DNA of 64,000 nucleotides from Xestospongia bergquistia (taxonomy: Eukaryota > Porifera > Demospongiae > Haplosclerida > Petrosiidae), in NCBI GenBank assembly GCA_963965975.1, contig OZ014422.1, positions 5,045,155-5,109,154 on the forward strand. The letters are read 5' to 3'. Positions 3,961 through 64,000 of the stretch are shown here, piece after piece; positions within the stretch are counted from its first letter, which is position 1; each line of letters opens with the position of its first letter. A program made the position numbers and the translations under genes. The notes beneath the pieces were generated by a model that saw only the letters and a list, made by a program, of their open reading frames with translations, did not search any database and had not been told where the DNA came from.

Positions 3961-4001
3961 CATAATTCTGGCTCATGTATATAAGTGTGGCTATTGTTAT
4001 G

Positions 4002-4190
4002 CTTGATTGCCTTTTCTACCATTACATCATTTGGCTCATGTCTAATTGATATAATGACTGAACACACAACAGACACAGGATGATAGAGTATGTCTGTGAT
4101 ATTACTAAGTATAGTCTGGCTATTGTTGTACTTGATTGCCTTTTCTAATATTACATCATTTGGCTCATGTCTAATTGATATAATGACTCT
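4002..4190. repeat. Two-copy tandem repeat, period ~129 bp
   Basis: A segment beginning cttgattgccttttct occurs at 4002 and 4131, followed in both by nearly the same 60 bases (acatcatttggctcatg and on). It sits at the downstream edge of the large repeat array. No gene was seen between here and 4828. Confidence 0.8.
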
Positions 4191-4828
4191 GATAAATCTG
4201 GATCTGATAAATATGTAGATGTGTCTGTGACATTTAAACATTCCTGAATCAAGTTAGAAAAAAGTCTTTCATCATTCGAGTCAGTCTAGGCTAAGTCGTT
4301 TGTGCAATAATCAGATTGTAAACTTGGTAGAGACAAACCATGCCTAACTGATGTAATGGCTTGAAACACAACTGACACAAGATGAGAGTATAATTATGTT
4401 ATGCAGAGTTATGCAGCTGGACAGCCTTTGAACTATGAATGTTATTTTATATTAACAAGAAGTCCACACATGCATATATTTTATAATGTTGCATATTGAC
4501 TCAAAGATTTTGAAGAGCAGGTTACTCGCCTGTGTTGAAGTATTGCTACTACAAATAAATTATTCAGTCATTGTTGTCAAATAATTTCAAATATGACATT
4601 CAATTAACAAATATATTAAATGTTAATAAAGTAAATTATATCAAAATCATACAATTCAATTACAACTATTACAATAACTCTACTACAAAACTATTACTTC
4701 ATTAACTAGTTAAGATTTGATAAAAATTTCTGGCCATCAAGATGACTTGGCAGTCTTCTCTAAAACCAGTGACATTAACATGTCATTGACAGTTATGTCA
4801 TAAACACCTTTCAAATACCTCACTGTTC

Positions 4829-6812
4829 TTACACTGCTTGTTGCACTTGGTCAGCATTGGTTGATAGATACGTCGACAAATCTGTGTTATTTAAGCGTGG
4901 CTCAAGTGTTCCTGAAACAACGATCAAATTATGTGGGTCATTTTGTGGCAAACTTTCTATATAATAGCTGTCATCAGCCAAGGAGCTATAACCACTTTCA
5001 TTTTTGCCGTTTAACTTGTCCAATGGAACACTAACGACAGTTTTCTCTTCTACTGATAATTGTGTTTGCTTACGACTACACTTCCATGAAGCTATAACAC
5101 AGGAACATACTATAACAACTACTAATAGTAGTACCACAAATCCACCTAGTGAAGAAGGCAAACTAATGTAAAGAGGAAATGACTTGTTGATGGCTGTTGG
5201 AGATTCTCTTGTGGATGGCATTATAGATAGGATGACAGAAGAACCAACAGAAAATGGAGATGAGATGACAGAAGTACTAACGGAAAATGGAGCAGTTGTA
5301 TTAATATTAATACTAGTAGGAGATGGAACAGGTAACTGAGTTGATGTCTGATTTGTACTATTGTCTATTGAATGGACATAACCACTTCCACTCTCTCGTG
5401 GTAGTGAAGTGGGGGCGGGGTCACAAAAGACATTCAAACCTTGAGGAGCGTAAAAAAGGTTGAAGTGATAATCTGTTGGTGACATTGATTTCAAGTCAAT
5501 TACTTCAACACGATATGTTCCAGAGTGGAGTGACACAACGAGAATATATTGACCACCAAAAAGATGATATCCATCACAGCCACCACTGAAACAAGGAAAG
5601 GTGCCATTAGCGATTACCTGTAGGTGTTGGTCATTACATCCTTTACTTGTATTGTAGGTCATGATAACAGACGAAGTTAATAACACAAGTATTATGTTAC
5701 CATCAATGTCAATGGAGTAGACTCTAGAAACAGGAAATGGTAATGATACAGAACATTTAGACTGAAAACCATTTTTATAGAACGTGAAATTTGATGCAGT
5801 TAGATCTACTACTATATTGTTGAGATTCCATAGTTCACCATTTAATGGAATCAGGTGCTTGTCTTGTCCATCTTCTTTAACAAGATATATGTGTTTAGTC
5901 TCCTTACACTTGAGGATGAAATAAGTCGTGTTAAAGGTCAGAGGTTGCCATTTGGAAGGACAATGAGTAAGTGATGTCATGACATCGGAATAAATTTGAA
6001 CATCACCATTTTTGAGATTAAATCTTAGCAGTGCATTTGAATCATCAATGTAAATAGAGTTGGTATAACCATCGTGAAGAACAAATGCATGTGCCGATCC
6101 TTCACCAATGGTCTCCATATAGTACACTCCATTTTGAACAGACAGAGCTAGTACAGCAGTACTACAGCTAATATATACGATTTGATTTAGTGTATCAACG
6201 TACAAGTCATTAGGATTGATACAATAGAGAGGTGAACTGGCTGTGTCATCAAATAGTTTAAACGTGTTAACGGGTTTTCCTTTTGTTGTAATTAGTACTC
6301 TGTCTTGGCTGAGCCATACAGAGTCTTTCGATCCAGGGAAGAGTACAATGTCGGAAGGTACATCAGCAAATTTAAAATTGAATGTAAGGTTGGAAGTGTC
6401 TGGAGCAGTTTTACTGATAAATTGGTTCTCCTTCAACTTGGAACAGCCCGCAGTTGTGTTGATAACAGCTTGCCATGAGCACAAGTCCAGTTGATTATTT
6501 CCTATGTAAATAATTACATTAGAAGATTATAATACGATATAGTATAGCAACCGTCCCTCACGCCTGCGTTAGCCTCGTACCCAGACGATTCGGAGACGAA
6601 CGCCTGGGGTTGAGATTATATATTACTTATTGCAAACTGAAAGTGGTATCGGTGTGCATTCGTTAGACTAAGGTAATCTACAAACTTTTATAACCTAAAG
6701 TCTAAAGCGTACGAGAGTGTAGGCCTAAACTTAGTATCAGCTTACCTTGTAGATTTGGAGAGACAGTAGTTAACAAGGTTTGCAGCAGAAAGAAAACTCC
6801 TAACGCAGTCAT
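4829..6812 (-). CDS. Orphan type I membrane protein with a propeller-like ectodomain
   Basis: Two coding exons, 6746-6812 and 4829-6501, join in phase (donor GTAAG, acceptor ACATAG) to give about 580 residues. The first exon is a clean signal peptide starting MTALGVFFLLQTLL. The long ectodomain has many N-glycosylation sites and repeated short blade-like segments (IYIDDSNALLRFNLKNG and similar) that resemble NHL or YWTD propeller repeats. A Ser/Thr-rich stalk follows, then one membrane helix (FVVLLLVVVIVCSCVIA) and a cytoplasmic tail of about 90 residues with tyrosines in GYSSLADDSYYIESL. I do not recognise the family. A receptor or adhesion role is inference from topology only. It is head-to-head with TAPT1. 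Confidence 0.75.
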
Positions 6813-12991: not shown

Positions 12992-14093
12992 TTATTCCAC
13001 AGGATAAGAAGCCATTGTGGCAATTCCACACATGTTGTTTTTATTACGAGCAATCATAATGTATCCATTCATGCCCCAGCTTGCACCTATATGTGAATTG
13101 AAGTATTAATCAAGAGCAAAATGACAGGAATCTTACCCCAGGAATTCTGACAAAGCCAGTAATCTTCACCTCCATAGTTGCCATAACCTACTACAAGCAT
13201 GGAGTGGTCAAGTTTAGTTGATGAGCATTGGTCACTAGAATAAACACCACTATGGTATAGCTAGATAATATAATGACAAAATAATGCTAAATTAAATATA
13301 GTGAGTCTATTGTGTTTACTTGAAAAGAACTATGACCTGCATCAACAGCTACCATCACAGGTTGGTTAGCAACAGCATAAGCTAGAGCAGTCTCATTGCC
13401 ACTCATAACATTCATAAAAAAGCTGATAGGGAAACGGTTGCCATTACACTTGTGACAAATACACTGTGAACCATTAGTATTAGGATAGTCACTACAGAGA
13501 CCACCTAGTCGTTTAATACACTGGACAACATCTGATTCTAAATGCCTACACTGACAGTCTGGAGTGCAACAGTCTATTAACTCCTCGTAGCTATATGCCA
13601 CTAAATGACCTGTTTTAATTGCATGGAGACTGCTAACTGCATCAACTAGTACAATTTCTACGCTACAGTCATATTGGTCTTGATTTTTAACAGGCAAAAC
13701 AACTCCTTTGTCTACCCAGTTCACTTCTGATGGAGGATCAAACAGTGGCTTGCTGTTAAAATGTTTGCTATCATGAGGTGGCTGCAAAATTATCTTTGAT
13801 TTAAGAAGAGTTTCAGGACTCTATTAAAACAAAGGTAACGTTGTTATAACTATATTGATCGAACTTACCAAGTGAGCAAATTTGTTCAATTCCACAGTGT
13901 AACCAAGTTGTGCAGAATTATGCTGATTGACAAAGTCTGCATTCTTTTTCCATTGTGGATAATATGAGCTCAAGTCATCCACACCAGACAAATGTATAGC
14001 AGCCCAGCTAAGGAAGTCAGAATACTCTGTTCCTTCACTGAATACACAGTAGGAAAGAGATAGTATCAAAGTCACTTCTAGTAGAAACTTCAT
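12992..14093 (-). CDS. Cathepsin L-like protein with the catalytic cysteine position altered
   Basis: Four exons, 13869-14093, 13320-13820, 13137-13260 and 12992-13086, give 314 residues with a signal peptide ([18 protein letters not shown]). The propeptide resembles inhibitor I29 ([20 protein letters not shown], then VELNKFAHL). The mature papain fold has [16 protein letters not shown], then [10 protein letters not shown] where active papain enzymes have CGSCWAFS. In an ungapped alignment the nucleophile position is Ser and the preceding residue is Cys. The His ([11 protein letters not shown]) and Asn (CQNSWGASWG) regions are intact. The CNGG block of normal enzymes is missing. Sponge silicateins are cathepsin L relatives with Ser in place of the catalytic Cys, but this protein also lacks the Trp and Phe that follow. 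A pseudoenzyme, a silicatein-like protein, or an enzyme using the shifted Cys are all possible. Confidence 0.85.
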
Positions 14094-48111: not shown

Positions 48112-51100
48112 CTACTCCTGTTCCCCCTGTTCCACAATACTTAGCGACAATGCCATATCCCAGTAATGCTCAGCTCCATGTCGTTTAAGATGTTCTCGTG
48201 CTATTGTCTCACTAGGACACTGCTTGAAACGCCAATCCAAAAAATGGCGGTTATCTCTAATACCCTAGAAACAATCAGAAAGCTGTAAGATAACTTTACA
48301 TACATCTTCCTACTGTCAAGATTATTAACAAATGGAATTAACAAGATACTACAAAACACTATCAATTATGTGTGTACATTGTCTACGAGTACACTAGTTT
48401 GTATAACTTACTTCCCATACTACAACACAGCTGTTAGACTTTTTGTTACTCGAGTCTTTTTCATTGTCCGAGTCATCATCTAAGTGGATAAGATAAATAA
48501 CAGATCAAATAAATTGTTGGACAGTGAATGAATTAACACTGTATAGATGGTAGACATAACTTACCATCTCCTATTGTATCTGGATTCCATTTGATTCTGT
48601 GTAACATCAACTTTTTGTATTTTCTGAGAGCCTTTGGTCCACCTTCTATAATGACTAAGTTAACATTAGAATACACTAACACACAGCCTGTCAAATGATA
48701 CTGCTGAGCATTCATATCAACCTGTAATAAGGGGTGGAGTTTGGACATGGGTAACATCCTTAATTTACTTTGAATTTATTAGAATGATTTGATAAGTCAC
48801 GGACACGATACACAGCAACATGTACACCACACGATGTATCTTCTTGCATTTTTTTGATCTTCTTAGCTCGCTTTTGTTCTGGAGTTAGTTTGCGAGCAGC
48901 ATTAGCTGCTTCATGTTGGCTAAGGAAATGTAAACAATGAAATAACAAAATTGACATTGAAGCAATTATAGAAAGTTTACAATAAGGTTAAACAGCTGGT
49001 TAACCACAAATGATATCAAAACCATGTGACAATTTGTGTATATAGTGACAAAATACTGATAGTTTAATACATATTACTAGAATATGTGACACAGGTGGAA
49101 AAACTATACTTATTTTGAAGTGTTTTTACTTTTGCAGCTGCTATACAATGATTAGGTCACTTAGATATCAAATTGGTTACAAATTGGTTTCATAGCAACC
49201 ACATATCCACAATTGTCTATTTCAAAATCTGCCATAAAGCCAAATTGGGTCATGTACATAATGATACATGTATTAGTAAACAATACCGTTGTCTCTCTGC
49301 CATTTGAGCTTTGACACGAGCTGTTATTTTTGTAGGATCTTGTACAGCATCAGTTCCCAGTACTCTCATCATGTTTGAGATACGTACTATATTTTAATAA
49401 TAACATCACATACTTAGGTCGCAATGAAACCACACTGACTCACATTTAGGTTCTGGTTTCTCTAAGAAACCGAATCGAATTTTTTCTTGTTTCTCTAACT
49501 CAGCTTCACGTCTTCTCTGTTTACGAATTTTTTTTCTTTCAGTCTTTGTCAAAATAACTGGCATAACTACAGGCTTTGATGGAGTACCTAATTAAACAAC
49601 ATAACACTTTAAAACTGCCACAAAATAATATACAGAAATATACCGTAAATGTCAAAATTTTTGAGGTAGTTATATTTTTGCAGTTGACACAAAACGCGAA
49701 AATTAGACTTGTGAATAATTAATAATCAAATTTTCGTGGTTGACACAAAACGCAAAATTATGAGTTCGCGAAAATTTTATGCACGAAAGTTTTTGCGGCG
49801 AAAATTTTGACATTTACAGTACTACAAATACAATTGTATAGTACTGTCAATACTTGTTTCAAAGGGGAAGACCCTATTCACCAACTTAATTATTAGTTAA
49901 TAGCTAGTCTACACTTACCAGCTGGGTCTACTGGTATAGGATGTTCTACCAAGTTAGTTATCTCTCGATATTTTTGTTCAATAGGCAAGTTTCTGTCACA
50001 ATCAGCATATGTTCTACTAGGTAACAAGTCAGCATCCCACCACTCAACAAGAGGTATGTCATCTTCTCTCTGTATAAAATAATAATATAATACTAAATAT
50101 AATATTATTGAACTATACACATAAGAATAATTATTGTAAGAGTGGACCACTTATTATCAGTAGGTTTTGTCCTATGTTCTAGTTACTTATAGTAACAGTA
50201 GATATTACCTTATAAGGACAAGATATAAGTTAATACAATTATGAATATATTTGGAATTGGATAATTCACTTAGGTGGGGCTCATAAAAATGGCAGCTATC
50301 TTCATTGTCTACCTATTATCAATGATAGTTCTATGTTCTGCAAAGCTACCACAGTTCTCTTGGGATACTGTGCCAGTTTTCTTTCATTCAGGAAATGAAA
50401 GTGGTCTCTACTCTCAAGATGCTCTACAAACAATGGCTAAGTTTCAAATGGTGACAATTGAAAAGTTTCAAAGCTACCAAGTCCAAGGAGTTGATGATGA
50501 AGATGATATGGTAGCTGTCATGAAAGCTGTTAAAAAGATCAACCCTAATGTAGCTACTTACTTCTATATGAATTCTTACAAAGATCGTCCTGAAATGACA
50601 CGCATGGCACGGCAACTTGAACAGCATCCAGACTGGTTCTTACGAAATGAAGAGGGCATAAAAGTAAAGAATAATGGTCAAGGTTATTATGTCTTTGATT
50701 TATCAAACCCTGATGTACGACAATGGTGGCAGGACACATGTATTAATGCAATAAGGGATGCTGATGGAGATGGTTGCTATTGTGATTCATCAGCTCAGCG
50801 GCCAGTGAAATTTACACCACCTCTGTCTGATGCTATTTTTGAAAAGTTTGAGAAAGGGTTACTAGATTTGACACAAGATGTACAGAAAGCATTAGGTGAT
50901 GATAAATTATTGATTGGAAAGGTTTCCAACCAGTCATTTGTTAAATCAGTTCAAATTGAATATTTCCAAGCTACTAATGATTCCATTAATGAATTGATGT
51001 TAGGGGTTACCAATGGTAAAGTAATGCAAGCACATGTACCTGTGCAAGTAGATTGTACCGGAGATCTTACTAACTATCTAGCAGCATTTTTAATAGGAGC

Positions 51101-54100
51101 TGGAGACTATTCTTATTTTGGTTGTGGCAAATGGAATACTATTAGAGATGACAAGACAGCTATGACCTGGAAACCAGAGTATGACAAACCACTTGGAGCT
51201 CCTAGGGGTCCTGCTATATACAATAATGGAATGTGGAAGAGAGAGTTTACTAAAGGAACCAGTGTTATGTTTGATACAACTAGTAATACTGGTACAATAC
51301 AATGGAGTATTGAATGACTCCTATTAATTGTGTATAATTAGTAGATACTATTGTATGCTAAATAAAACTACTATTGCTGAGTGCTTGATAAAATGGCTGC
51401 CAATAAATTCACCAATGCTGCAGTAATGGTTAGTTAAAATACTGACATTGTAATAATAACAACTTTGTTTTGGTTGATAATAAAAGAAAGAAAATATTGT
51501 TGGCATTCCTTTTGTCAAATTTACCAGCCAATCCTAAAGATCTCATGTTAATTACACATAATTAAGTTTGTTTTTCATTACAAATAACATTCATCTTTCT
51601 CTAGATTGAGAAAGTTCTTGAGTTTTTATTCAACCAGCCTTCTTACAGTGCAATTCAATAATATTAAGCTAACACTTCCTATTAATATAAAATAGGAATT
51701 TTGATGAATACACTTAAAATTGCAACATTAGTTAGGCGGGGCTCATAAAAATGGCAGCCATCTTAATTTTCAACCTATTAACAATGGTAGTTCTATGTTC
51801 TGCAAAGCTACCACAGTTCTCTTGGGATACTGTACCAGTTTTCTTTCATTCAAGCAATGAAAGTGGTCTCTACTCTCAAGAAGCTCTGGAAATAATGGCT
51901 AAGTTTCAAATGGTGACAATTGAAAAAGCACAAAGTCACCTCGTCCAAGGAGTTGATGATGAAGATGCCATGATGGCTGTCATGAAAGCTGTCAAAAAGA
52001 TCAACCCTAATGTAGCTACTTACTTCTATATGAACTCTAACAAGGATATTCCTGAATTGACACGAACAGCACGGCAATTTGAACAACATCCTGACTGGTT
52101 TTTACGTAATGAAGATGGTGTCAAAGTAAAAGATAGCCAGGGACTTTATGTCTTTGATTTAACAAACCCTGATGTACGACAATGGTGGCAGGACACATGT
52201 ATTAATGCAACAAAAGATACTAACGGAGATGGTTGCTATTGTGATTCCTCTCAACAACGACGTTTGAGATTTACACCACCTTTATCTAATACTATGTTTG
52301 AAAAGTTTGAGAAAGGTTTACTAGATCTGACACGAGATGTACAGAGAGCATTAGGTGATGATAAATTATTGATTGGAAAGGTTTCCAACCAGTCATTTGT
52401 TAAATCAGTTCAAATTGAATATTTCCAAGCTACTAATGACTCCATTAATGAGTTGATATTAGGGGTTACCAATGGTAAAGTAATGCAAGCACATGTACCT
52501 ATACAAGTAGATTGTACTGGAGATCTTACAAACTATCTAGCAGCATTTTTAATAGGAGCTGGAGACTATTCTTATTTTGGTTGTGGCATGTGGAGAACCA
52601 TGGGAGGTGATATGACAGCCATGACCTGGAAACCAGAGTATGATAAACCACTTGGAGCTCCTAGGGGTCCTGCTATATACAATAATGGAATGTGGAAGAG
52701 AGAGTTTGCTAAAGGAACTAGTGTTATGTTTGATACAACTAGTAATATTGGTACAATACAGTGGAGTACTGAATGACTCCTATTAATTATGTATAGTTAG
52801 TAGATACTATTTATATATTAAGAGAACCTATATATAGTCTACTTCATATTGCTTAATGCTTAATAAAGTAGTTGCATGTCGTCTAAAGTGGCAACAACAA
52901 AATTGCAAAATGGACTTGTCTATTTTATTATATTATATTTTAGATTTCTACACATCATTCATGGTTGTTGGTAGATAAACAATTTTTTTGTCATTTCTTT
53001 ATTAAATTTTGTTGTTATAAATCCATTTGTTTTTGATAAAGTAACATAACCACAAGTACATTACATGTGAAGAACAAAAAAGAATGCACCTATCATTATG
53101 GAATACTTAAGTAACTAGTTTTACGCAAGAATTAGTAGGATTAAGGAAATACTGTTCCCATTAAAGATCATTTATTTAAAGAAACACAAAGTATTATAAG
53201 AGTGACCTGAACAATACCAGTTATGTGAGAAATTTAGAAAGTGTAGCTACTTTAGTTTAATATTTTATTGAGGAACAGGACTAGCTTTGTCTCAATGGGT
53301 CTTATACAAGATTATGTCATTTTGTTCAAATGCCTAGTTTACCAGTACAATCAAATGATGATGAGAGCATTTAGGAAGCAGTTTAAATGCAGTAATTTAA
53401 AACAAATCATAGCTATATACCTTCATAAGGGCAGCAAAGTCACCATTTTTATTCATTCAACAATGTTTGTAGTTTTAAAATGGGCACGATCTCATGTAGC
53501 TATGATCCACTACATCATGGAGAATCGAAAATGTGACCATTAAATTTGCCATACATAATTTCAGATGATACTACTGACTACTCTAATTAAGGCACGTTCA
53601 GGCTTGCCCTGATTACCCAGATTGTTGACTACTTATTTCAGTGCTAGCACAATATAACTAATTCTGAAGCAGTACCTGGCATTTTTTGGTTTACATATCA
53701 TACAATATATACTAACAATTAATGACCACACCCACCTCTTCTGTCGTTGGAGCAATCAGAGCAAGTTTTGTAGCAGAAGATATTCCTGTTTTACGAGCAC
53801 TAGACGCTATCTCTGATTGGAGTTTTTCTAACATAGCTTTAGTTCTCATGGTCTGACCTAACTTGACATATTTGCCTAAAGCACAATGAAGTCATTATGA
53901 CATCATATACCAGGGAAATACCTGGCTCATTAAATTTAAATTGTCGCCGACCACGTCCAGCTATCTGTAGTGACACTCGTTGATCAAAATAGGGATTTCT
54001 ATCAACACTCTCTTCTTTATTTTGTTCTCTAATTATCTGCTTCATCTGTTGTTTCTGCTGAGCTCTAACATTTGCCTGTATGAATTAAAACAATGATAAA

Positions 54101-55491
54101 AATAGTACTATAGAAACTTAAAATTATAAACTTAAGAAAGTTTCACATACAAAGACATCAATATATTTATACTGCATTATTCAAGTCTAGGGCACTCTTA
54201 TGTAACATGCTCCTATGATATCTGTCTTAATTGGTAATTATTGTGTGTTCAACTTACCATAAGAGTGGGTGTACGTGTTGATTTTGGCATGTCTACTTTA
54301 CCTTCTGCATCTAAAACTAGAGGTACTGGTTTTGAGGGCCTGTTTTACAAGTAATACAATAAATATATCATGTATTAGGATACTTACATTGTAGATGTGA
54401 CAGCTGATAAGAGAGAAGGTTTACCAGCTAATGTGTTTTTTATTTTAGCTTGTAATTCAGCTGCTTTTCTTGCCTTCTCTATGTGTGTGTGTGTGTGTGG
54501 AGAGAGAGAGATCAGAGTCATCAGACAATCTACTAGATACATACAAGACTTACCCACGGCATCAGACACAGCAGGGAGTTGATGAGAAGGTATTGATACA
54601 TTAGTAGGAGTAGGCAACAGACCAGTATCTTTATCTGACTATAAAGAATAACAAATTAAAAGATTAACCCCTAGATTTGTTAGTACAATTTAAATAAACT
54701 CATACAATAATAATAGAAAATTTGGAGAGGAGCTGAATTGGGGGTTTGGTAAAATTTCCAAATTTTAACTGACAGATTAATATCACTTTTCAATAAATCA
54801 TCAAATACACAATCTTGTGGTTACATACAATAGATAAACTTACTGTTAAATATTACATATTAAATATGACATGTGTGATGACATGAGAACAATATAGAGT
54901 CATATAATACCTGAACAAGTAGAGACTTTGTGTGAGCTCGTCTCTCTTCAATTTGTTTTAATGTTGATGCCAACATTGCTTGGACGTGACCATGAGTCAA
55001 TCCCTTAGCTGGTTCATCAAATCGACTACAACATCTTAAAACAAAATTAAACTAGATTAAGAAAATACCTTTTACTTTTTTTAGCCGTGGGCATCTCTGC
55101 TTCCTCCATTTGTTCAAATAGTCTTTTTAGTCCTGGCTGCAGTATACTGCCTTTGGCAAGGTTGGCCGACTTGACCTACAACATATCATGTGACAGTCAG
55201 GTGATTATTATGTGATACAGATTACCTCTAGGACTTTACGGTAAAGTGTATCAACAAATACTGCTGTTTCATGTTCTAAATATGTCCTCAATTTTTCTGA
55301 AGGAGACAAAGTGCATTAAATAGAATAACATGTAAGAGATGACACTCACCTGTTGTTGCTTGTCTGTTTAAACTTTTAGCTATACAATCTAAGACTGTAT
55401 TCACTACTGTAGGATTAAAACCACCAAGTAAAGCTGTAATTCTCCCAGATACCCATGGTCTTAGTAACTCTAGCTCAAACTTTGACAACAT
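48112..55491 (-). CDS. PRPF3: PRPF3, U4/U6 snRNP protein
   Basis: Sixteen exons give 636 residues: 55350-55491, 55226-55296, 55069-55175, 54911-55025, 54554-54638, 54388-54478, 54258-54339, 53922-54075, 53736-53875, 49919-50069, 49444-49587, 49287-49386, 48769-48919, 48565-48721, 48412-48479 and 48112-48264. The N-terminal PWI domain reads [20 protein letters not shown] and on. The middle has [20 protein letters not shown] and the [12 protein letters not shown] block. The C-terminal part has [69 protein letters not shown] and [24 protein letters not shown]3 holds U4/U6 in the tri-snRNP. Intron 9 (50070-53735) is far larger than the others and contains two complete opposite-strand genes. Confidence 0.95.
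49641..49822. mobile_element. MITE-like inverted-repeat element in a PRPF3 intron
   Basis: The left end taccgtaaatgtcaaaattt and right end aaaattttgacatttacagt are almost perfect inverted repeats about 180 bp apart. Inside, gttgacacaaaacgc occurs twice as a direct repeat and several GCGAAAATT blocks appear. It has no coding capacity, which fits a non-autonomous DNA transposon. Confidence 0.75.
50289..51317 (+). CDS. Secreted glycoside-hydrolase-like protein, copy 1 (nested in PRPF3 intron)
   Basis: A single-exon frame of 342 residues with a signal peptide ([18 protein letters not shown]). The body has [66 protein letters not shown] and [11 protein letters not shown], a strand-and-acidic-residue pattern like TIM-barrel putative glycosyl hydrolases of the GHL15 type. 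That family name is my best recollection, and substrate and catalytic residues are not known to me. An upstream tggggctcataaaa box just before the ATG is repeated at copy 2. It lies inside PRPF3 intron 9 on the opposite strand. Lack of introns in an intron-rich region suggests retroposition or horizontal gain. Secretion is inferred. Confidence 0.8.
   Translation: MAAIFIVYLLSMIVLCSAKLPQFSWDTVPVFFHSGNESGLYSQDALQTMAKFQMVTIEKFQSYQVQGVDDEDDMVAVMKAVKKINPNVATYFYMNSYKDRPEMTRMARQLEQHPDWFLRNEEGIKVKNNGQGYYVFDLSNPDVRQWWQDTCINAIRDADGDGCYCDSSAQRPVKFTPPLSDAIFEKFEKGLLDLTQDVQKALGDDKLLIGKVSNQSFVKSVQIEYFQATNDSINELMLGVTNGKVMQAHVPVQVDCTGDLTNYLAAFLIGAGDYSYFGCGKWNTIRDDKTAMTWKPEYDKPLGAPRGPAIYNNGMWKREFTKGTSVMFDTTSNTGTIQWSIE
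51751..52776 (+). CDS. Secreted glycoside-hydrolase-like protein, copy 2 (nested in PRPF3 intron)
   Basis: A single-exon frame of 341 residues, highly similar to the copy 434 bp upstream, with signal peptide [18 protein letters not shown]. Differences cluster in the first 200 residues (for example [10 protein letters not shown] against [10 protein letters not shown]), while the region [20 protein letters not shown] through [11 protein letters not shown] is identical and nearly so in DNA. The promoter-proximal box (ggcggggctcataaaa) is shared. Both copies keep open frames, signal peptides and the [20 protein letters not shown] block, so both are probably functional. The function is as uncertain as for copy 1. 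Confidence 0.8.
   Translation: MAAILIFNLLTMVVLCSAKLPQFSWDTVPVFFHSSNESGLYSQEALEIMAKFQMVTIEKAQSHLVQGVDDEDAMMAVMKAVKKINPNVATYFYMNSNKDIPELTRTARQFEQHPDWFLRNEDGVKVKDSQGLYVFDLTNPDVRQWWQDTCINATKDTNGDGCYCDSSQQRRLRFTPPLSNTMFEKFEKGLLDLTRDVQRALGDDKLLIGKVSNQSFVKSVQIEYFQATNDSINELILGVTNGKVMQAHVPIQVDCTGDLTNYLAAFLIGAGDYSYFGCGMWRTMGGDMTAMTWKPEYDKPLGAPRGPAIYNNGMWKREFAKGTSVMFDTTSNIGTIQWSTE
52777..53735. other. Remainder of PRPF3 intron 9
   Basis: About 960 bp between nested copy 2 and PRPF3 exon 9. Some short open frames occur but none has a recognisable domain or splice logic. No clear transposon ends were seen. Confidence 0.5.
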
Positions 55492-55492
55492 T

Positions 55493-56480
55493 TTGAAGAG
55501 GACGTTTGTGATACGTGCTATCTATTTATACAGTCCAATCAAATTGCAGTAACCACGTGGTATGATAAGTGGTTTTGGAATAATTAATTAGTTCGTGTAG
55601 ACAGCTTCTTGAGAGTTGCTCTCTTCACTTGTTGTTGACACTTCTGTTCTTGTTCAGCTAATGTAGTAGCCATCTAAAGAATATATTAATCAGTATTGAC
55701 TAAATATGGAGTTGTTATATAATATATTATTACCAAGTCAACTATTGCTGTTTTTAATGATTTCAAAGTTTCCTTCAATTCTTGTACAACTCCTTCAAGT
55801 TAGGTTGTCTTCTTGGTAGTTATGAGAGAGAGAGAGAGAAAGTATACGCCCTCAGTAATTAATAATCATATAACCTTGCTTATATCTTTTTTCTGCTCTC
55901 TTTAATTCATAATCAACAGATGTGAATAATAGGGATTTCTGTCATTAATGTGCTATTATGTAGGGCCCAAGTTTGTTTGTTTTTCAAGGACTGTGAGAGA
56001 GAGCCATCCTGCATTAATGTTTTGAGAGAATACTTTATGTGTTTGTAGTAATAGCTCTTATTAAAATATATCATCACAGATTAACTTGGATTAACTAAAT
56101 ATTCCTTTGAAATAATGATTAAATTAGATAGTTTTATGTATAACTTAATGATAGAATATAACAGTAGAGTTTGAAGTGCAATCTTTTGGCTTAGGATATG
56201 AATATAATCAAATATCACAGCTTAAATGACTGTTGTTTTGATTAACAATGTTCTATACAATAAGAACCCAACCCATCATAGTTTATATTGATTGGTGGTT
56301 AAGGTAGCCAATCAGATTCAATTACCTGATCTTAAGCCATCAGTCGTCTTGAAGCTGCATGATCAACTACTAAGAAGACAATTATTGGATATCCTGAAAA
56401 CTCAAAATCATCAACAAACTTGTAGTCACTATTCTAACACTAACACTATTTCTCTATCTCAAGTGAGTGTCTAGAGTGGA
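55493..56480. repeat. Segmental duplication, copy A (deleted in the middle)
   Basis: From just upstream of the PRPF3 start codon (gaagaggac, ccacgtgg), this stretch matches 61764-62180 and then 63483-64000, in the same orientation, with scattered substitutions. The 1.3 kb that separates these two parts in copy B is missing here. The homology starts within a few bases of the PRPF3 ATG. Confidence 0.85.
55584..55880 (-). pseudogene. Truncated copy of the coiled-coil gene 3' end
   Basis: An exon-like piece at 55584-55673 begins MATTLAEQEQKCQQQVKR and ends early at TRTN compared with the copy at 61838-61963. The neighbouring exon (LEGVVQELKETLKSLK) has an in-frame TAA where the other copy has an Asn codon. 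Upstream exons are absent because of the internal deletion in this duplicate. Confidence 0.75.
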
Positions 56481-57533
56481 TGCTATATATTTCTAGCTCA
56501 TCAGACTTGTAGGTATTTAAGTTAATAATAACTATACAATGATTTGCTTTACCAAACAAAACTTAATTTTCACCAAATAAAGCTTCCTGAGAAACTATAA
56601 ATAATGCAAATAACTCATTTATATATTCCAGGGGTCCATTATTAAATTCTGAGCCCTAAATATAAGTCAAATAGTGCTGTTGCTATGACTACAGTGTCAA
56701 ATGTCTACTTGGTGAAAGTAAACTTTATTTGGTGAATCAAATCATTAATTCTACTATCTTAAATCTACCTATAAACGCTCTGGACTTGTCCTTATAATTA
56801 TACAAGATTGTTAGAGAAAACAAGAAAATTTCATACTAGTGGTAAAATAGGGATTGTACTGACATATATAAATGACAAATATAGTAACACTGAAAATGCA
56901 TGCCATTTATGAATAACATTCCTTCTGTGTAGGCAAATTGCAGCAGCAACTTTACTTGTGTTACTATTTTTAGCGCAACTATTTTTGTTTTTCATACTGC
57001 AATAAAAATTCTTCTGAGGTGAGGATCAATTCTTAGTAATATCAATTCTAGGTATTGTTATTACAACATGGTAGATACTCCCTTAGTTATCACAACTGTA
57101 TAGTATAATTTATGTTGTTTTGTATTATTTTGTAAAATTTCCAAGAAGTCAACTTAAAAATTTAGAGCCATTTACTTGTATAATGCAGTAAAGGTCATAT
57201 GTTATATATACACATTGCAACAATATTTCAATTGACAGCTATTCTCCGTTAGAGACAAATACCATTAATGAATCTAAGACTTTATAGGAAGAGGTCATAT
57301 TGCACATGCATACATACAATGCCTATATCTATTACTGTTAATTTAACTCGATTATCCTTTCTTCTATTACTACTAATGAAAGAAATGGAATAGTGTGTTA
57401 TATTTCAGGAACCCTGTAATTATTATAAAATTACGTGGTCATTTTATGATCATGGCCAGTCTACAATTATGTCCAATGATTATGATATTTTACTGATATT
57501 CAAATAAAGATTTTCTATTATTACAGGTGAAAC
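56481..57533. other. Gene-free interval upstream of the multi-MATH gene
   Basis: About 1 kb of AT-rich sequence. A TTACAG acceptor at about 57521-57526, 8 bp before the ATG, suggests that a non-coding first exon of the downstream gene lies somewhere here. No other gene was seen. Confidence 0.45.
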
Positions 57534-60500
57534 ATGGATGAACTGGAACAAGATATTGTGTTTGTTAATCCTCCAACATATGACCCTAACTGTCCAGTTT
57601 GTTTTGAACTATTAAAAGATGCTTATCAAACAACTTGTTGTGGTAATCACATATGCTCTAATTGTACTGAACGACTAAAGTGTACTCCTAATGTCAAGTG
57701 TCCTCAATGTCGAGATGATAACTTTGAAGCAAATGTAGATAAGTTTTTTTCTAGTCAGCTGTTAAAATTAAGAGTACGTTGTTATTATCATAAGGAGGGA
57801 TGTACCTGGACAGGAGAACTATGTGGATTAGAACAACATGTAACAATGAATTGTAATAGGGGCATGGATGAACCAGAAGAAGATATTGAGTTTATTAATC
57901 CTCCACCATACGATTATAAGTGTCCATTTTGTAGTAAACTATTAAGAGATAGTTATCAAACAACTTGTTGTGGCAATCACATATGCTCTGAATGTACCAA
58001 AAAACTAAAACCAAACTTCAAGTGTCCTCAATGTCAACATGATAACTTCAAAGCAAATGAAGATAAATTTTTCTCTCGTCAGCTGTTAAATTTAAAAGTA
58101 CATTGTTATTACCATAAGGAGGGATGTACTTGGACAGGTGAGCTACGTGGATTAGAACAACATGTAACAACAAATTGTAATAAAGGTGTTATAAAATGCA
58201 AGCACTGCAATTCTCAATGTGCTGATGAGGCAGCAGTAGAAGAGCATTTACCAAATTGTGGGGAAATCCCTATTGATTGTCCTAATAAATGTTCTAATAG
58301 CCAATATAAGCGCAAAGATATGCAACATCATCTTGAGACAGAATGTCCTTTACGTGTAATTGTTCATTCCAAGGGAAGCATACCTTATACTGCCAACAAG
58401 ATAGTACAAACAGTTCCTTTATCTTTTACAATGACAAATTACATGTATTATTTAGAGAGTAGAGATCCTTGGTTTAGTCCTCCATTCTATACACACAAAC
58501 AAGGGTATAAGATTCATTTAAGGGTAGATGCAAATTTACATGAACAGGGCAATGTTTCTGTAGTTGCATTTACAACAAAAGGTGAGTATGACCATTTACT
58601 TCAGTGGCCACTTCGGGCTGAAATAGAAGTGGGTCTCCTTAATTGGAGAGTTAAAAGATATAACGTCAAGACACTTTACCTCTCAGGTGATTATTTCTGT
58701 AGTCAGATGCCCACTGAGAAACTAGCTGAGTGGGGTAAAGGCATCATCAAATTTATACCCAATGAAGAGCTTTGGTACGATCCTGGTAAAAACACAGAAT
58801 ATCTACAACACAACTGTTTGAGCTTCCAAGTTAGGAGAGTGACTATTTTACCAAATATTGTACCAGATCTTCCACTATGGGCTATAGGAAAATGCTTATT
58901 TCAATTCACAATTATTTCATTTACTCAAATTAAGCAAAGAAAAGCTTCTTTTTATGGTCCTCCATTTTATACAAATTTAAGAGGATACAAGCTTATCGTT
59001 TCTGCTTTCAATGATTTCAATACAACAAAGGGTACATATATGTCCCTGCATGCTAGGCTCATGAAGGGAGAGTATGATGATACATTAGCTTGGCCTTTTA
59101 GTGGTGATGTTGTTGTTGAAATATTGAATTGGAGGGAAGATAAAAATCATCAAAAGTACACTTTTAGTTTCCATAAAGGATTGCCAAGTACATCTATTAA
59201 TAGAGTACTCAATATTGATATAGCACTGTCTGGTTGTCAACAGATTGTACCATACAGTGCCCTTCCTTACAACCATTCTACAAACACAGAGTTTCTTAGA
59301 AATGATTGCATTCATATTAAAGTTAAGTCAGTAGATGTATATTCCTCTCATAACATTCTTAAAAGCCCTTTTTGGAGACACCCTTCACATGATACACAAG
59401 AACTTTGTCATTTTGTGCTAACTCACTTTACTAAGCGTATACAACACAAGACCATATATTTCAGTGATCCTTTTGAAAACGGATACAGAATGCAACTTAA
59501 AGTCAATCCTGACGAGGATGGTCATGTTGGTATACATGTGTATCTAATGAAAGGCCCAATAGATGAATTTTTGCCATGGCCTTTTCATGGAGATGTAGTA
59601 GTAGAACTACTGAATTGGAGAGAAGACAATGGTCATCACAGTAGAGTGATTGAATTGTCATCAAATGTCAGTAATAGTGCATGTAGTCGTGTAATAACTG
59701 GTGAACGAGGAAGTGTCAGCTGGGGAAACTCACAATTTATACAACATTCAGCTCTTGAATACAATCCATATACAAACACAAAATACCTTCAAGATGATTG
59801 CCTACTATTCAGAGTCAAAGACGTCATTGTTCACTCATCTGAGTTCAGTCAGAAATGTCCATGGTGGCAAAATCCTCAAACAGTGTCTCCTTACTTAGAG
59901 TTTAATGTTACAAATTTTTCAAAACGTAAAGATCTTGGTAGTACATACATTAGCTCTGCATTCTTAACACATTACCAAGGTTATAAAATGAGACTAGAAG
60001 TTGAAGCAGAAAGAAGGAATGAAACCTATTATGTTTCAGTAAATGCTCGCCTCTTAAAGGGTGACAATGATGACAATCTTGTGTGGCCTTTTGAAGCTGA
60101 TATCTTTGTTCAGCTTCTTAATTGGAGACAGAACATCAATCATTATGATCAAACAATATCCTTCGATAGAAAAACTCCAGACTATTTTTCTGGCCGTGTT
60201 GCAATAGGGGAAGCAGCTTTAGGCTGTTGTAGTGCACAACAATCAATACTTTGCTCAAAACTTAGATACGACAATACAACCAACACTGAGTATTTACAGA
60301 ATGATTGCCTTAGATTTAAGGTCAAAGAAGTAGTTGTATACTCAACACCTCATTGCAGTAAGAGTCCAATTTGGCAAAATCAGAAACCTTCAAAATTCTT
60401 TGAGTTCACTATAACTCAATTCTCTCATCATATTCGACTAAAGAATGCTTATTTCAGTCCTCCATTTTATACATCTGCATATGGTTATAAAATGTGCCTA

Positions 60501-61379
60501 AAAGTATATGCTGCAGGCAATGAAGGGACACATGTAGCAATTTATGGATATTTAATGAAAGGTGAATATGATGACTTCCTATCATGGCCTTTTTGTGCTG
60601 ATATTGTTATTGACATTCTTAATTGGAATGGTGATCACAATCATCATAGAAAGGTTCTGAGTTTTGATGATAGCAGTCCTGACAATGCTCGTGCTAGAGT
60701 TTATGATGATGGTCTAGCCCCCCAAGGCTATGGTAATAGTGAAGTTATACCAATCTCTACTTTATTTCCTAGATATGCTTCAAATACAGAATATCTTGAA
60801 GATAACTGTATGCGTATTAGAGTATATGATATTGCTATATATAACACTCCTCTACTTAACAAAACTCCAAGATGGCAGAATTCATGGTTCACCACATCAC
60901 CTTGGCTACAATTCACTGTCACAGGGTTTTATAAACGTAAGATATATGACAGTGAGTATATTAGTCCTCCATTCTATACTCATAAAAATGGCTACAAAAT
61001 GAGATTAGAAGCAAATCCTAATGGATATGGTGATGGTAAAGGTACTCATCTTTCAATTTTTGCTTGTTTGCTTAAAGGTGAGAATGATTATAATCTGAAA
61101 TGGCCAATGAATATTGATATATCAATACAACTTATTAATTGGCGTAAAGATGACTCGCATATTTTGCATGTAATACATTTTGCTAATGCAGTATCTGGTG
61201 CTCGTAATCAAGTAATGGGTACAAAGGAAAAAGCTGATTCCAGTTGGGGGAATCATAAATTCTGTGCTCACTCTACTTTATACACAGCTACTCGTGATGT
61301 TCAATACATTGAAGATGACTGTATTCTTTTGAGAGTTAGAGGTGTAATAATACACTCACGTAAAGGATTTTTTTCATAA
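57534..61379 (+). CDS. TRAF-like protein with two RING/zinc-finger blocks and six MATH domains
   Basis: One uninterrupted frame of 1281 residues. Residues ~15-110 hold a RING (CPVCFELL, TTCCGNHICSNC, KCPQC) and a TRAF-type finger (CYYHKEGCTWTGEL). Residues ~111-218 repeat the whole block (CPFCSKLL, TTCCGNHICSEC). A further TRAF zinc-finger pair follows (KCKHCNSQCADEAAVEEHLP; CPNKCSNSQYKRKDMQHHLE). From ~295 to the end are six MATH/TRAF-C repeats, each marked by a PPFYT..GYK-like motif, a KGEYDD-type turn, WPF and LNWR. The repeat starts include SFTMTNYMYYLES, FQFTIISFTQIKQR, CHFVLTHFTKRIQH, LEFNVTNFSKRKD, FEFTITQFSHHIR and LQFTVTGFYKRKI. TRAFs normally have one RING and one MATH domain. E3 ligase and receptor-adaptor roles are inference. 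No coiled coil is obvious. Confidence 0.9.
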   Translation: MDELEQDIVFVNPPTYDPNCPVCFELLKDAYQTTCCGNHICSNCTERLKCTPNVKCPQCRDDNFEANVDKFFSSQLLKLRVRCYYHKEGCTWTGELCGLEQHVTMNCNRGMDEPEEDIEFINPPPYDYKCPFCSKLLRDSYQTTCCGNHICSECTKKLKPNFKCPQCQHDNFKANEDKFFSRQLLNLKVHCYYHKEGCTWTGELRGLEQHVTTNCNKGVIKCKHCNSQCADEAAVEEHLPNCGEIPIDCPNKCSNSQYKRKDMQHHLETECPLRVIVHSKGSIPYTANKIVQTVPLSFTMTNYMYYLESRDPWFSPPFYTHKQGYKIHLRVDANLHEQGNVSVVAFTTKGEYDHLLQWPLRAEIEVGLLNWRVKRYNVKTLYLSGDYFCSQMPTEKLAEWGKGIIKFIPNEELWYDPGKNTEYLQHNCLSFQVRRVTILPNIVPDLPLWAIGKCLFQFTIISFTQIKQRKASFYGPPFYTNLRGYKLIVSAFNDFNTTKGTYMSLHARLMKGEYDDTLAWPFSGDVVVEILNWREDKNHQKYTFSFHKGLPSTSINRVLNIDIALSGCQQIVPYSALPYNHSTNTEFLRNDCIHIKVKSVDVYSSHNILKSPFWRHPSHDTQELCHFVLTHFTKRIQHKTIYFSDPFENGYRMQLKVNPDEDGHVGIHVYLMKGPIDEFLPWPFHGDVVVELLNWREDNGHHSRVIELSSNVSNSACSRVITGERGSVSWGNSQFIQHSALEYNPYTNTKYLQDDCLLFRVKDVIVHSSEFSQKCPWWQNPQTVSPYLEFNVTNFSKRKDLGSTYISSAFLTHYQGYKMRLEVEAERRNETYYVSVNARLLKGDNDDNLVWPFEADIFVQLLNWRQNINHYDQTISFDRKTPDYFSGRVAIGEAALGCCSAQQSILCSKLRYDNTTNTEYLQNDCLRFKVKEVVVYSTPHCSKSPIWQNQKPSKFFEFTITQFSHHIRLKNAYFSPPFYTSAYGYKMCLKVYAAGNEGTHVAIYGYLMKGEYDDFLSWPFCADIVIDILNWNGDHNHHRKVLSFDDSSPDNARARVYDDGLAPQGYGNSEVIPISTLFPRYASNTEYLEDNCMRIRVYDIAIYNTPLLNKTPRWQNSWFTTSPWLQFTVTGFYKRKIYDSEYISPPFYTHKNGYKMRLEANPNGYGDGKGTHLSIFACLLKGENDYNLKWPMNIDISIQLINWRKDDSHILHVIHFANAVSGARNQVMGTKEKADSSWGNHKFCAHSTLYTATRDVQYIEDDCILLRVRGVIIHSRKGFFS

Positions 61380-61763
61380 ACAAACCACAGAGACAATGTA
61401 ACAATAATAATTTGTAGTAACTAAAAATGTTATATTTTTGTTTTTACTTTGTAATGAATGTGTATCAAACATTATCTTTAGAATTTACTAAAGTTATTAC
61501 TCATTTTCTTTTTACAGTTCTTACAGTGAACTATAGATTTGTAATAGTACCATATGTTTAGTAATTTTGTTAGTAGATAATTTTTACATATTTTGAAGAT
61601 AGTTAAAGCAATTGCAAAATTCAATCTTTTGATAATGGAAGTGTACACAATAAGTCAAGTGGTGAGTTCCGAATGGCCTTGTGGAAGCATTCTCAAGCCT
61701 AAAAAGATGGAAGTTCAAGGGATTAGAAGCAATCTTATTGATAAGCCTAATTATTATTATTTT
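61380..61763. other. 3' flank of the multi-MATH gene
   Basis: About 380 AT-rich bases from the stop codon to the start of duplication copy B. They presumably hold the 3' UTR. No exon or repeat was recognised. Confidence 0.5.
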
Positions 61764-64000
61764 TGAAGAGGACATACGTACTATCTATTTATACAGTCCA
61801 ATCAAATTACAACAACCACGTGTAAGATAAGTGAGGTTTATTTTTTGAAATAATTAACTAGTTCGTGTAGATAATGCTGTTCAGTTTCTTTGAGAGTTGT
61901 TTCACGTACTCTCTTCACTTGTTGTTGACACTTCTGCTCTTGTTCAGCTAATGTAGTAGCCATCTAAAGAATATATTAATCAGTATTGACTAAATATGGA
62001 GTTGTTATATAATATATTATTACCAAGTCAACTATTGCTGTTTTTAATGACTTCAAAGTTTCTTTCAGTTCTTGTACAACTCCTTCAAGATTGGCTGTCT
62101 TCTTGGTAGCTATGAGAGAGAGAGAGAGAGTACACACCCTCATTAATTAATCATCATCATATAACCTTGCTTATATTTGTTTTCTGCATGTTCTCTTTAA
62201 TTCGTGAGACATTTTCTGTTTGTCTGTTTCAATTTCTTCCTTCAATTTCACTATCTCCTTTTCCTTGTTTAATTTTACACCAGTCAATATCTTATTGTGT
62301 TCCTCTTGAACTTGCTGTAAAAGCAACATGAATAGCTTCTTGTCTTCTCTCATCTTCCTTCTTCCATAATTTATGAGCAGCAGATATAGCTGTGTCCAAC
62401 TAAATAAAGTGAATGATTATAATCATATTATATATAAATAATTTATTAGATTATAAATGAAGTTTGTTGTGATATATATATGTATATATATTATGCTGTT
62501 TACATCTTTACAGTGTAAAGATGATGCACCTTAGTTTGGTAGTTTCTGCTTGATAATGTAGTTCAAGTTTACACTTCTCTTCTAATAACTCTTCTTTAAG
62601 TCTTCCTGTGGAGTCTTCATGAAGTTTTAAACAAGCTGAACGACATCTAATAATAATTAATAATGTAGAGTTTACTAGACAGAATACTCACTGTTCTAAG
62701 TTTGTCTTGAGTTTCATTTCAGCCATTACTTGATGTGTATCAATTTGTGTTTGTAATTCCTTTATCTGTTGCCTCAACATTTCTTCCTTCTCTTCTCACT
62801 CTCTTCCAGTTCTTTCTTGTAACATCTGCCACTCCTGAATTACTGACTATTAAAACAAACAAAAACAAATATATTAATTTTTTATTATATCAACTGTTAT
62901 GTACTTCAGATTCTTTAATTTTTTGTGCATGCTCAGATACTAATAATTGTTCTTGTGATGTTGAGAGTTGATATCTCAAGTCTTCAATTTGGGCTATCAA
63001 ATCTCTTCTCTCTTCTTCTAAATTCTCTGATGAATTATAACTTGACTAGTGTTAGCCAATAGCTATAGATATTGTAAGTAGTATACATGAGATTGAGCTT
63101 GTAATAAAGACTGATCATTGCCTTGAGAATAGTTTGTTGCATTCTCTTTACTCTAGAAAAGAAAACTACATTTTTTGACTTGTTTGTTTCACTGACTTGT
63201 TCTAATTGTTGCCTAGCAACAGATAGTTCTTCTTTGAGCTGATTCAGTTCAGTTCTATATTGCTCATTAGATGAAGTGAGTGCAGTTTCATAATTTTGAC
63301 GTAAACATTGAAGAGCATCACTTTGATTAAGATTAGATAACTAAATAAGGAAGACATAGTAACAGAGCATACTTGTAGGGATCTTAGAAATTTGAGAATA
63401 ACTCTTAGTTTGTAAATAATAAAGATGACAGTAATATCACCTATATAATAGCACACTGAGAAACATTATATGTAATTTGATTTCTATAGTGATAATCAAC
63501 AGATGTGGATAATAGGGGACTTCTGTCATTAATGTACTATTATATATGTAGGGTCCAAGTTTGGTTACATTTTTTTCAAGGACAGAGGGAGTGTCAACCT
63601 GCATTAATTTTTGAAAGAATACTTTGTGTTTGTAATGACAGCTGTGATTAAAATGTATCATCATAGATTAACTTCGATTTTGCATTAACTAAATATTCCT
63701 TTAAAATAGTAGATTGTTTTATGTATAACTTAATGATAGAATATAACAGTAGAGTTTAATGTGCAATCTTTTGGCTTAGGATATAAATATATTCAAATAT
63801 CATAGCTTAAATGACTGTTGTTTTGATGTTCAAGAATAAGAACCCAACCTATCATTGATTAGTGGTTAAGGCTAGCCAATCAGATTCAACTACCTGATCT
63901 TATCAATTGTCCTTGAAGCTGCACGATCAACCACTAAGAAGACAACTATTGGATGTCCTGAAAACTCAAAACCATCAACAAGCTTGTAGTGACTGTTCTA
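61764..64000. repeat. Segmental duplication, copy B (longer)
   Basis: 61764-62180 and 63483-64000 match the two parts of copy A at 55493-56480, including the short PRPF3-upstream segment with the ccacgtg box, although no PRPF3 exon is present here. The duplication runs off the window end. Confidence 0.85.
61838..63340 (-). pseudogene. Coiled-coil gene, probably inactivated
   Basis: At least seven exon-like pieces on the minus strand code for charged heptad sequence: 63197-63340 (LSNLNQSDALQCLRQNYETA), ~63085-63150, ~62907-63030 (ENLEEERRDLIAQIEDLRYQ), ~62690-62850 (EEMLRQQIKELQTQIDTHQV), ~62530-62650, ~62160-62400 (EEHNKILTGVKLNKEKEIVK), 62024-62109 and the last exon 61838-61963 ending VNYFKK. 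A TGA at 62796-62798 interrupts the frame of one piece, and the 62160-62400 piece needs a frame change to join AAHKLWKKEDERRQEAI to the following coil. This suggests a decaying gene, though alternative splicing or sequence errors could explain it. A centrosomal or trafficking coiled-coil protein is a guess; I do not recognise it. Confidence 0.55.

What the first reader, a model, noticed from the sequence alone, without database searches (positions are those of the whole stretch)
57534..61379. Single-exon gene with duplicated RING/zinc-finger block and six tandem MATH domains
Canonical TRAFs have one RING, several zinc fingers, a coiled coil and one MATH domain. Here the RING plus CYYHKEGCTW finger block is duplicated nearly word for word, and MATH is repeated six times with no visible coiled coil. 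Standard TRAFs trimerise through the coiled coil and MATH; six MATH units in one chain could be a covalent multimer that binds clustered receptor tails. The lack of introns in an intron-dense region and the flanking segmental duplications suggest a young, expanding gene.
Basis: partly seen in the sequence, partly recalled or inferred. Interest (0 to 1): 0.75.

Follow-up and report, generated by a model that had tools for sequence, protein, structure and literature searches.

The report
Two-RING, six-MATH TRAF-like gene
A gene, probably from an animal, encodes a relative of the TRAF immune-signalling ubiquitin ligases in which the ubiquitin-handling head is present twice and the partner-binding MATH domain six times in one chain, which may replace the usual assembly of separate copies.

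Summary
Window 57534-61379 (+) is one open frame of 1281 codons: two RING+zinc-finger blocks (81 of 108 aligned residues identical), two further TRAF-type fingers and six MATH domains, each above Pfam's cut-off on its own. A coiled coil of TRAF length does not fit. The reading needs three corrections. (1) Coding is intronless, but a splice-acceptor-like site ends 7 bases before the ATG, so a 5' UTR intron is plausible. (2) The gene is not simply young: MATH units are 26-38% identical with near-saturated synonymous sites; the RING block duplicated later (dS 0.37). (3) MATH units keep 1-5 of 15 TRAF2 receptor contacts, so TRAF2-type tail binding is unsupported. A new lead: the four TRAF6 sites whose mutation harms RING-dimer activity all differ between the copies, and copy 2 alone keeps both ubiquitin-contacting arginines. 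This suggests an asymmetric RING pair in one chain, though other TRAF6 contact sites are kept in neither copy. Structure predictions failed (mean pLDDT 31 and 42), the host genome could not be searched, and the host is unidentified. New variant of a known kind (TRAF).

The parts
57534..61379 (+). Whole coding sequence, 1281 aa plus stop
   Evidence: max open run 176 codons in 200 shuffles
57510..57526 (+). Splice-acceptor-like site (T-rich stretch ending in CAG), 7 bases before the ATG; an in-frame TGA at 57528-57530 makes 57534 the start if it is used
   Evidence: read by eye; not scored, no transcript evidence
57534..57863 (+). Copy 1 of the RING+ZF1 block (residues 1-110)
   Evidence: (D9, D10)
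57591..57710 (+). RING 1 (residues 20-59)
57780..57854 (+). ZF1 of copy 1 (residues 83-107); Cys97 at the TRAF6 Arg146 position
57864..58187 (+). Copy 2 of the RING+ZF1 block (residues 111-218); starts with its own MDE
57921..58034 (+). RING 2 (residues 130-167)
58104..58178 (+). ZF1 of copy 2 (residues 191-215); Arg205 at the TRAF6 Arg146 position (Arg182, just upstream, is at the Arg125 position)
58188..58349 (+). Two more TRAF-type zinc fingers (residues 219-272), present once
   Evidence: PF02176, 34.7 bits, one stretch
58359..58853 (+). MATH unit 1 with linker
   Evidence: 66.2 bits
58854..59351 (+). MATH unit 2 with linker
   Evidence: 82.0 bits
59352..59846 (+). MATH unit 3 with linker
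   Evidence: 58.8 bits
59847..60353 (+). MATH unit 4 with linker
   Evidence: 55.1 bits
60354..60854 (+). MATH unit 5 with linker
   Evidence: 86.4 bits
60855..61376 (+). MATH unit 6 and C terminus
   Evidence: 88.5 bits
55619..56436 (.). Left flank: pieces of a duplicated stretch (left copies of D5, D15, D17)
61909..64000 (.). Right flank: the matching pieces (right copies of D5, D15, D17; 96, 95 and 91% identical), with unmatched sequence between

Best explanation
The gene encodes an intact TRAF-derived, E3-ligase-like adaptor. Shown: a TRAF6-type RING-ZF1 unit present twice, two further TRAF fingers, no space for a coiled coil of TRAF length, and six tandem MATH domains that group together against the TRAFs compared. 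Inferred: multivalency is built into the chain instead of coming from coiled-coil trimerisation. The MATH array acts as a row of binding modules with diverged surfaces that recruits or clusters partners, and the two RING-ZF1 units act as the RING pair that TRAF6 needs for ubiquitin transfer. The likely setting is innate-immune or stress signalling, by analogy with animal TRAFs.
For: Six MATH units each above the Pfam cut-off. TRAF6 RING-ZF1-3 co-linear match, and each RING-ZF1 copy finds TRAF6 first. In a nine-row tree the six units separate from three TRAF MATH fragments with support 100/100. Pairwise dN/dS of the RING blocks is 0.36, and all their RING and ZF1 cysteines are kept in both. GC by codon position is 45/37/24%. 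TRAF6 activity requires a RING dimer in which one RING binds Ubc13~Ub and the partner's linker helix and ZF1 contact ubiquitin (PMC5702613: abstract, passages, first part of Results, section 9). TRAF genes respond to LPS in the sponge Halichondria (PMC8242945, passages) and to symbionts in the sponge Ephydatia (PMC13042239, passages); these bear on function only if the host is such an animal, which is not known.
Against: No expression data. RING scores fall below Pfam cut-offs. A pairwise dN/dS of 0.36 fits constraint on both copies but does not prove it for each. TRAF6 Glu69, which makes a salt bridge with UBC13 (PMC6874479, passages), is Asn19 and Lys129 here. The TRAF6 residues after Pro106 that touch ubiquitin's Ile36 patch are Gln-Cys-Arg and Gln-Cys-Gln here. 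The Phe118 position (dimer residue, recalled) is a gap or Asn in both copies. AlphaFold gave mean pLDDT 30.5 for the head and 42.4 for MATH4-6, so no model supports RING pairing or MATH packing. The six MATH units keep only 1-5 of 15 TRAF2 receptor contacts.
Confidence: 0.55

Rival explanations
1. The RING duplication is neutral or a spare copy: an in-frame tandem duplication that included the start codon. Translation can start at Met1 or Met111, and only one RING-ZF1 does the work.
For: Copy 2 begins with its own MDE and fits TRAF6 better than copy 1 (43-46 against 33-37 bits for the six TRAF6 RING-ZF1 chains). Copy 1 has lost both TRAF6 ubiquitin-contact arginines.
Against: dN/dS 0.36 over 108 codons and all RING and ZF1 cysteines kept in both copies. 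This is a pairwise mean, so one relaxed and one constrained copy is not excluded.
Confidence: 0.3
2. A scaffold without ligase activity: the RING/finger head serves only for binding, and the MATH array is a multivalent docking rod.
For: Sub-threshold RING scores. TRAF6 Glu69, the Phe118 position and the Ile36-patch contacts are kept in neither copy; copy 2 has Phe132 and Ser134 at the Ile72 and Leu74 E2-contact sites.
Against: All eight RING cysteines and the Pro106 equivalent are kept in both copies. TRAF E2 surfaces vary, and each TRAF may use other E2s (PMC5702613, discussion passage).
Confidence: 0.25
3. Assembly or gene-model artefact: tandem repeats joined wrongly, and the real gene has fewer MATH units.
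For: The gene lies between duplicated stretches.
Against: MATH units are only 45-55% identical in DNA, so confusion of repeats is unlikely. The frame is open over 1281 codons.
Confidence: 0.05

Closest known systems
TRAF6 (and TRAF2/3/5)
   Same: RING-ZF1-ZF2-ZF3 order and sequence of the head; MATH of TRAF/meprin type at the C-terminal end
   Different: RING-ZF1 twice, six MATH units instead of one, no coiled coil of TRAF length, RING with eight cysteines and CC-G-N-H spacing, few TRAF2 receptor-contact residues
Plant MATHx2 / MATHx4 proteins (Brassica rapa, PMC3664471, passages)
   Same: Tandem MATH domains in one chain, two or four
   Different: Class I is described there as without any other recognisable domain; here RING and TRAF fingers are present and six MATH units
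TRIM37-like proteins and Branchiostoma TRIMs with up to two MATH (PMC3503706, passages)
   Same: N-terminal RING with more than one MATH in some members
   Different: B-boxes there; no B-box hit here, TRAF-type fingers instead
TRAF5-TRAF6 RING heterodimer (PMC5702613; PDB 7l3l)
   Same: Idea of two non-identical RING-ZF1 units sharing an E2~ubiquitin site
   Different: There two chains; here two units in one chain, and pairing is not shown

Membership tests
TRAF family | N-terminal RING related to TRAF RINGs | tested here: met
   TRAF6 chains are the best PDB matches of each copy; Pfam RING scores are below cut-off
TRAF family | TRAF-type zinc fingers after the RING | tested here: met
   PF02176 above cut-off once; co-linear match to TRAF6 ZF1-3
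TRAF family | Coiled coil (TRAF-N) before MATH | tested here: not met
   29 residues with three prolines from the last finger cysteine to the first aligned MATH strand; by spacing only, no coiled-coil program was run
TRAF family | One C-terminal MATH of TRAF/meprin type | tested here: not met
   Type met, number not: six units, all above the PF21355 cut-off
TRAF family | TRAF2-type receptor-peptide contact residues (list of 15 recalled; not shared by all TRAFs) | tested here: not met
   1-5 of 15 kept per unit; controls TRAF5 13 of 15, 7ypc TRAF 3 of 15. TRAF6-type contacts were not tested
TRAF family | Trimerisation | not testable with these tools
   AlphaFold models uninformative
TRIM37 / TRIM with MATH | B-box between RING and MATH | tested here: not met
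   no B-box family among Pfam hits of the whole protein up to E 0.1 or of nine pieces up to E 1
MATH-only multi-MATH proteins (plants) | Tandem MATH without other recognisable domains | tested here: not met
   RING and TRAF fingers present

The most novel reading that the evidence does not exclude
The protein is a single-chain, asymmetric RING pair with divided labour. Copy 1 binds the E2, while copy 2 supplies the linker-helix arginine (Arg182) and ZF1 arginine (Arg205) that hold ubiquitin, together making one composite E2~ubiquitin site as in the published mix of two TRAF6 mutants. With six MATH units in the same chain (two trimers' worth), it would solve within one chain the dimer/trimer mismatch that TRAF biochemists describe.
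Probability: 0.15. Interest if true: 0.75.

Novelty: new variant of a known kind. Interest (0 to 1): 0.45.

Why it matters
TRAF signalling has a stated open problem: trimeric TRAFs meet trimeric receptors, yet RINGs work as dimers (PMC5702613, discussion passages). A natural chain with two RING-ZF1 units and six MATH units, and no room for a coiled coil of TRAF length, would be a ready-made test of whether covalent linkage can replace both oligomerisation steps, and of whether RING pairs may specialise.

Tried and rejected
Host-genome paralogues: the genome search 'own' was asked 14 times with the same request and never answered, so nothing is known about paralogues or MATH-number variation. 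Relatives elsewhere: none confirmed in viral contigs (no pattern match; 8 pattern matches, 0 confirmed) or genome contigs (7 pattern matches, 0 confirmed). These hold viral, bacterial and archaeal sequence, so this says little about animals.

Structure: the head alone (285 aa, single sequence) gave mean pLDDT 30.5, and MATH4-6 with MATH1-3 as second row 42.4. Neither was used for a fold search or for any claim on RING pairing or MATH trimers.

Rejected: a TRAF6 Phe118-conserved dimer interface. An earlier count said that Phe118 is kept in both copies. That was wrong: the Phe I saw lies at TRAF6 Phe122, and the Phe118 position is a gap or Asn in both (the entry corrects it; that entry's 'Arg183(ish)' is Arg182). 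Rejected: other TRAF pieces in the window. Rejected: TRIM membership (no B-box). A promoter scan of bacterial type found 8 sites against 8.9 expected and is not meaningful for this organism. A blastp of the protein against itself returned only the full-length match, so repeat comparisons rest.

Literature: ten searches, of which I saw the listed rows only: (1 of 1; 1 of 1; 25 of 58, mostly off topic; 8 of 8; 25 of 94; 20 of 51; 20 of 271; 12 of 21; 15 of 64), 85 (15 of 86); one search failed on a format error. Nine papers were opened, each in passages, named sections or abstract, none whole: PMC8195603, PMC3664471, PMC3503706, PMC8242945, PMC5702613, PMC6874479, PMC13042239, PMC4795655 (planarian TRAFs listed as zinc finger + MATH) and PMC4545420. 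I saw no multi-MATH or two-RING TRAF described. Most subscription journals and the sequence databases were not searched, so an annotated database entry of this or a similar protein may well exist.

Full report
What is there. The window holds one open frame at 57534-61379 on the + strand, 1281 codons. The longest open run in 200 base shuffles of window 55001-63000 was 176 codons. GC by codon position is 45%, 37% and 24%, as in coding sequence. The head carries RING-ZF1 twice, then two more TRAF-type fingers; the rest is six MATH units. Cut into units, 6 of 6 pass Pfam PF21355's gathering score alone (55.1 to 88.5 bits against 27.4). Spacing between the same landmarks of successive units is 160-172 residues.

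The head. Residues 116-275 align with TRAF6 RING-ZF1-ZF2-ZF3 in order (3hcs, E 4e-11). Copy 1 and copy 2 alone also find TRAF6 first (E 4e-8 and 5e-11). The best Pfam RING models score about 22 bits for each copy, below their 27-28 bit cut-offs. Each RING has eight cysteines in the order CPxC, TTCC, ICSxC, KCPQC. The CC-G-N spacing differs from the TRAF6 line and resembles RBBP6, which is also among the PDB matches; that the RBBP6 RING is of C4C4 type is recalled. The two copies share 81 of 108 aligned residues and 84.6% of bases, with dN 0.13, dS 0.37 and dN/dS 0.36 (Nei-Gojobori). This fits constraint on both copies, but a pairwise mean cannot exclude one relaxed copy. Copy 2 begins with its own MDE, so the duplicated piece began at or next to the start codon.

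The array. The units are 26-38% identical to one another and 20-34% to the three TRAF fragments compared. In a tree of nine rows the six units separate from TRAF2, TRAF5 and the 7ypc TRAF with support 100/100; branching within them is unresolved, unit 1 has a long branch, and only three outside rows were used. Synonymous distances between units are not estimable for 4 of 15 pairs and about 1 to 3 for the other 11. The MATH array is therefore older than the RING duplication. Of 15 TRAF2 receptor-contact positions (list recalled from TRAF2-peptide structures), units 1 to 6 keep 2, 5, 2, 1, 2 and 3; Gly468 is the commonest (5 of 6 units). The serine triplet 453-455 is whole in none, though units 2, 3 and 4 have one serine each there, and that stretch aligns with gaps. 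As controls, TRAF5 keeps 13 of 15 and the 7ypc TRAF only 3 of 15, so the result speaks against TRAF2-type tails and not against peptide binding in general. TRAF6-type peptide contacts were not tested.

Coiled coil and start. Residues 272-300, with three prolines, lie between the last finger's cysteine and the first aligned MATH strand; Pfam's match starts some ten residues later. A coiled coil of TRAF length (recalled as about 50 residues or more) does not fit; no coiled-coil program was run. A T-rich stretch ending in CAG (57510-57526) stops seven bases before the ATG and is followed by an in-frame TGA at 57528-57530. If that acceptor is used, translation starts at 57534, and the gene has a non-coding upstream exon. 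The site was read by eye, without a score. 'Single exon' therefore holds for the coding part only.

Surroundings. Pieces at 55619-56436 recur at 61909-64000 at 91-96% identity, so the gene lies between duplicated stretches. With the gene masked, no other TRAF or MATH piece is found in the window at E up to 1. Two tandem GHL15 genes at 50274-52776 are single open frames too, so an intronless coding region is not unique here. Intron density was not surveyed.

Mechanism. [quoted passage not shown] A mixture of an I72D/L74R mutant with an Arg-ZF1 mutant is active through one composite site, and TRAF5 rescues TRAF6 mutants of both arginines (PMC5702613; passages, first part of Results and section 9). 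Mapped by the phmmer alignments, sites 72, 74, 125 and 146 read V22, F24, S74, C97 in copy 1 and F132, S134, R182, R205 in copy 2. All four differ between copies, while 27 of 108 positions differ overall. The chance of that is 0.0033 if sites are drawn evenly, and 0.006 if Cys, His, Trp and Gly sites are left out. Surface sites vary more than buried ones, so the true figure is larger. Both arginines survive in copy 2 only. Reading copy 1 as the better E2 binder is my judgement (Val and Phe against Phe, Ser and a following Lys).

Against divided labour. Of the two TRAF6 sites whose mutation did no harm in that paper, Ser129 also differs between copies (K78, N186) and Glu144 is kept in both (E95, E203), so five of the six sites differ. 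TRAF6 Glu69, which pairs with UBC13 Arg14 (PMC6874479, passages), is Asn19 and Lys129. The three residues after Pro106, which touch ubiquitin's Ile36 patch in TRAF6, are Gln-Cys-Arg and Gln-Cys-Gln. The Phe118 dimer position (recalled) is a gap or Asn in both copies. Pro106 itself is kept in both. No usable model was obtained. I therefore give divided labour in one chain 0.15, and the broader reading, a multivalent TRAF-derived ligase-like adaptor, 0.55.

Known relatives. Plant proteins with two or four MATH domains (PMC3664471, passages), TRIM37-like proteins with up to two MATH and Branchiostoma TRIMs with two MATH (PMC3503706, passages) show that MATH repeats and RING+MATH pairs arise elsewhere. 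One survey lists MATH among the domains fused to TRADD-N in the sponge Amphimedon, and states that organisms with TRADD-N expansions lack matching MATH expansions (PMC8195603; section 10 and passages). In the rows shown by ten paper searches I saw no TRAF with two RINGs or several MATH units (searches and row counts are in Tried and rejected). The protein is TRAF-derived by head, fingers and MATH type, but fails two defining points (coiled coil, single MATH), so I file it as a TRAF-like variant, not as a standard TRAF.

Limits. The host species was not identified. That it is an animal is inferred from the TRAF-type head and a talin-domain gene in the window, and a sponge is only a guess from recall. 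The host genome could not be searched. There is no expression evidence.

Noticed in passing
50274-51317 and 51736-52776 (+): Two tandem single-frame genes, each with one GHL15 domain (PF14885, E 2e-61 and 3e-58), 91% and 89% identical in DNA over the two repeated 300-base stretches; hypothetical glycosyl hydrolases. A horizontal origin was thought of but not tested.
   Followed up: partly
1-4200: Several families of direct repeats with copies mostly 1.17-1.45 kb apart (D1, D4, D6-D8, D11-D14, D16; identity 61-99%); nature not examined.
   Followed up: no
62000-63400 (-): Minus-strand sequence that reads by eye like pieces of a coiled-coil protein with small introns; one piece also lies left of the TRAF-like gene (55619-55839). 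Its 101-residue frame at 63038-63340 has no Pfam hit at E 0.001.
   Followed up: partly
13290-13820 (-): Papain-family protease frame (PF00112, E 3e-16).
   Followed up: no
4829-6526 (-): A 565-residue stop-to-stop frame with a hydrophobic stretch near its C-terminal end (by eye) and no Pfam family at E 0.001.
   Followed up: no
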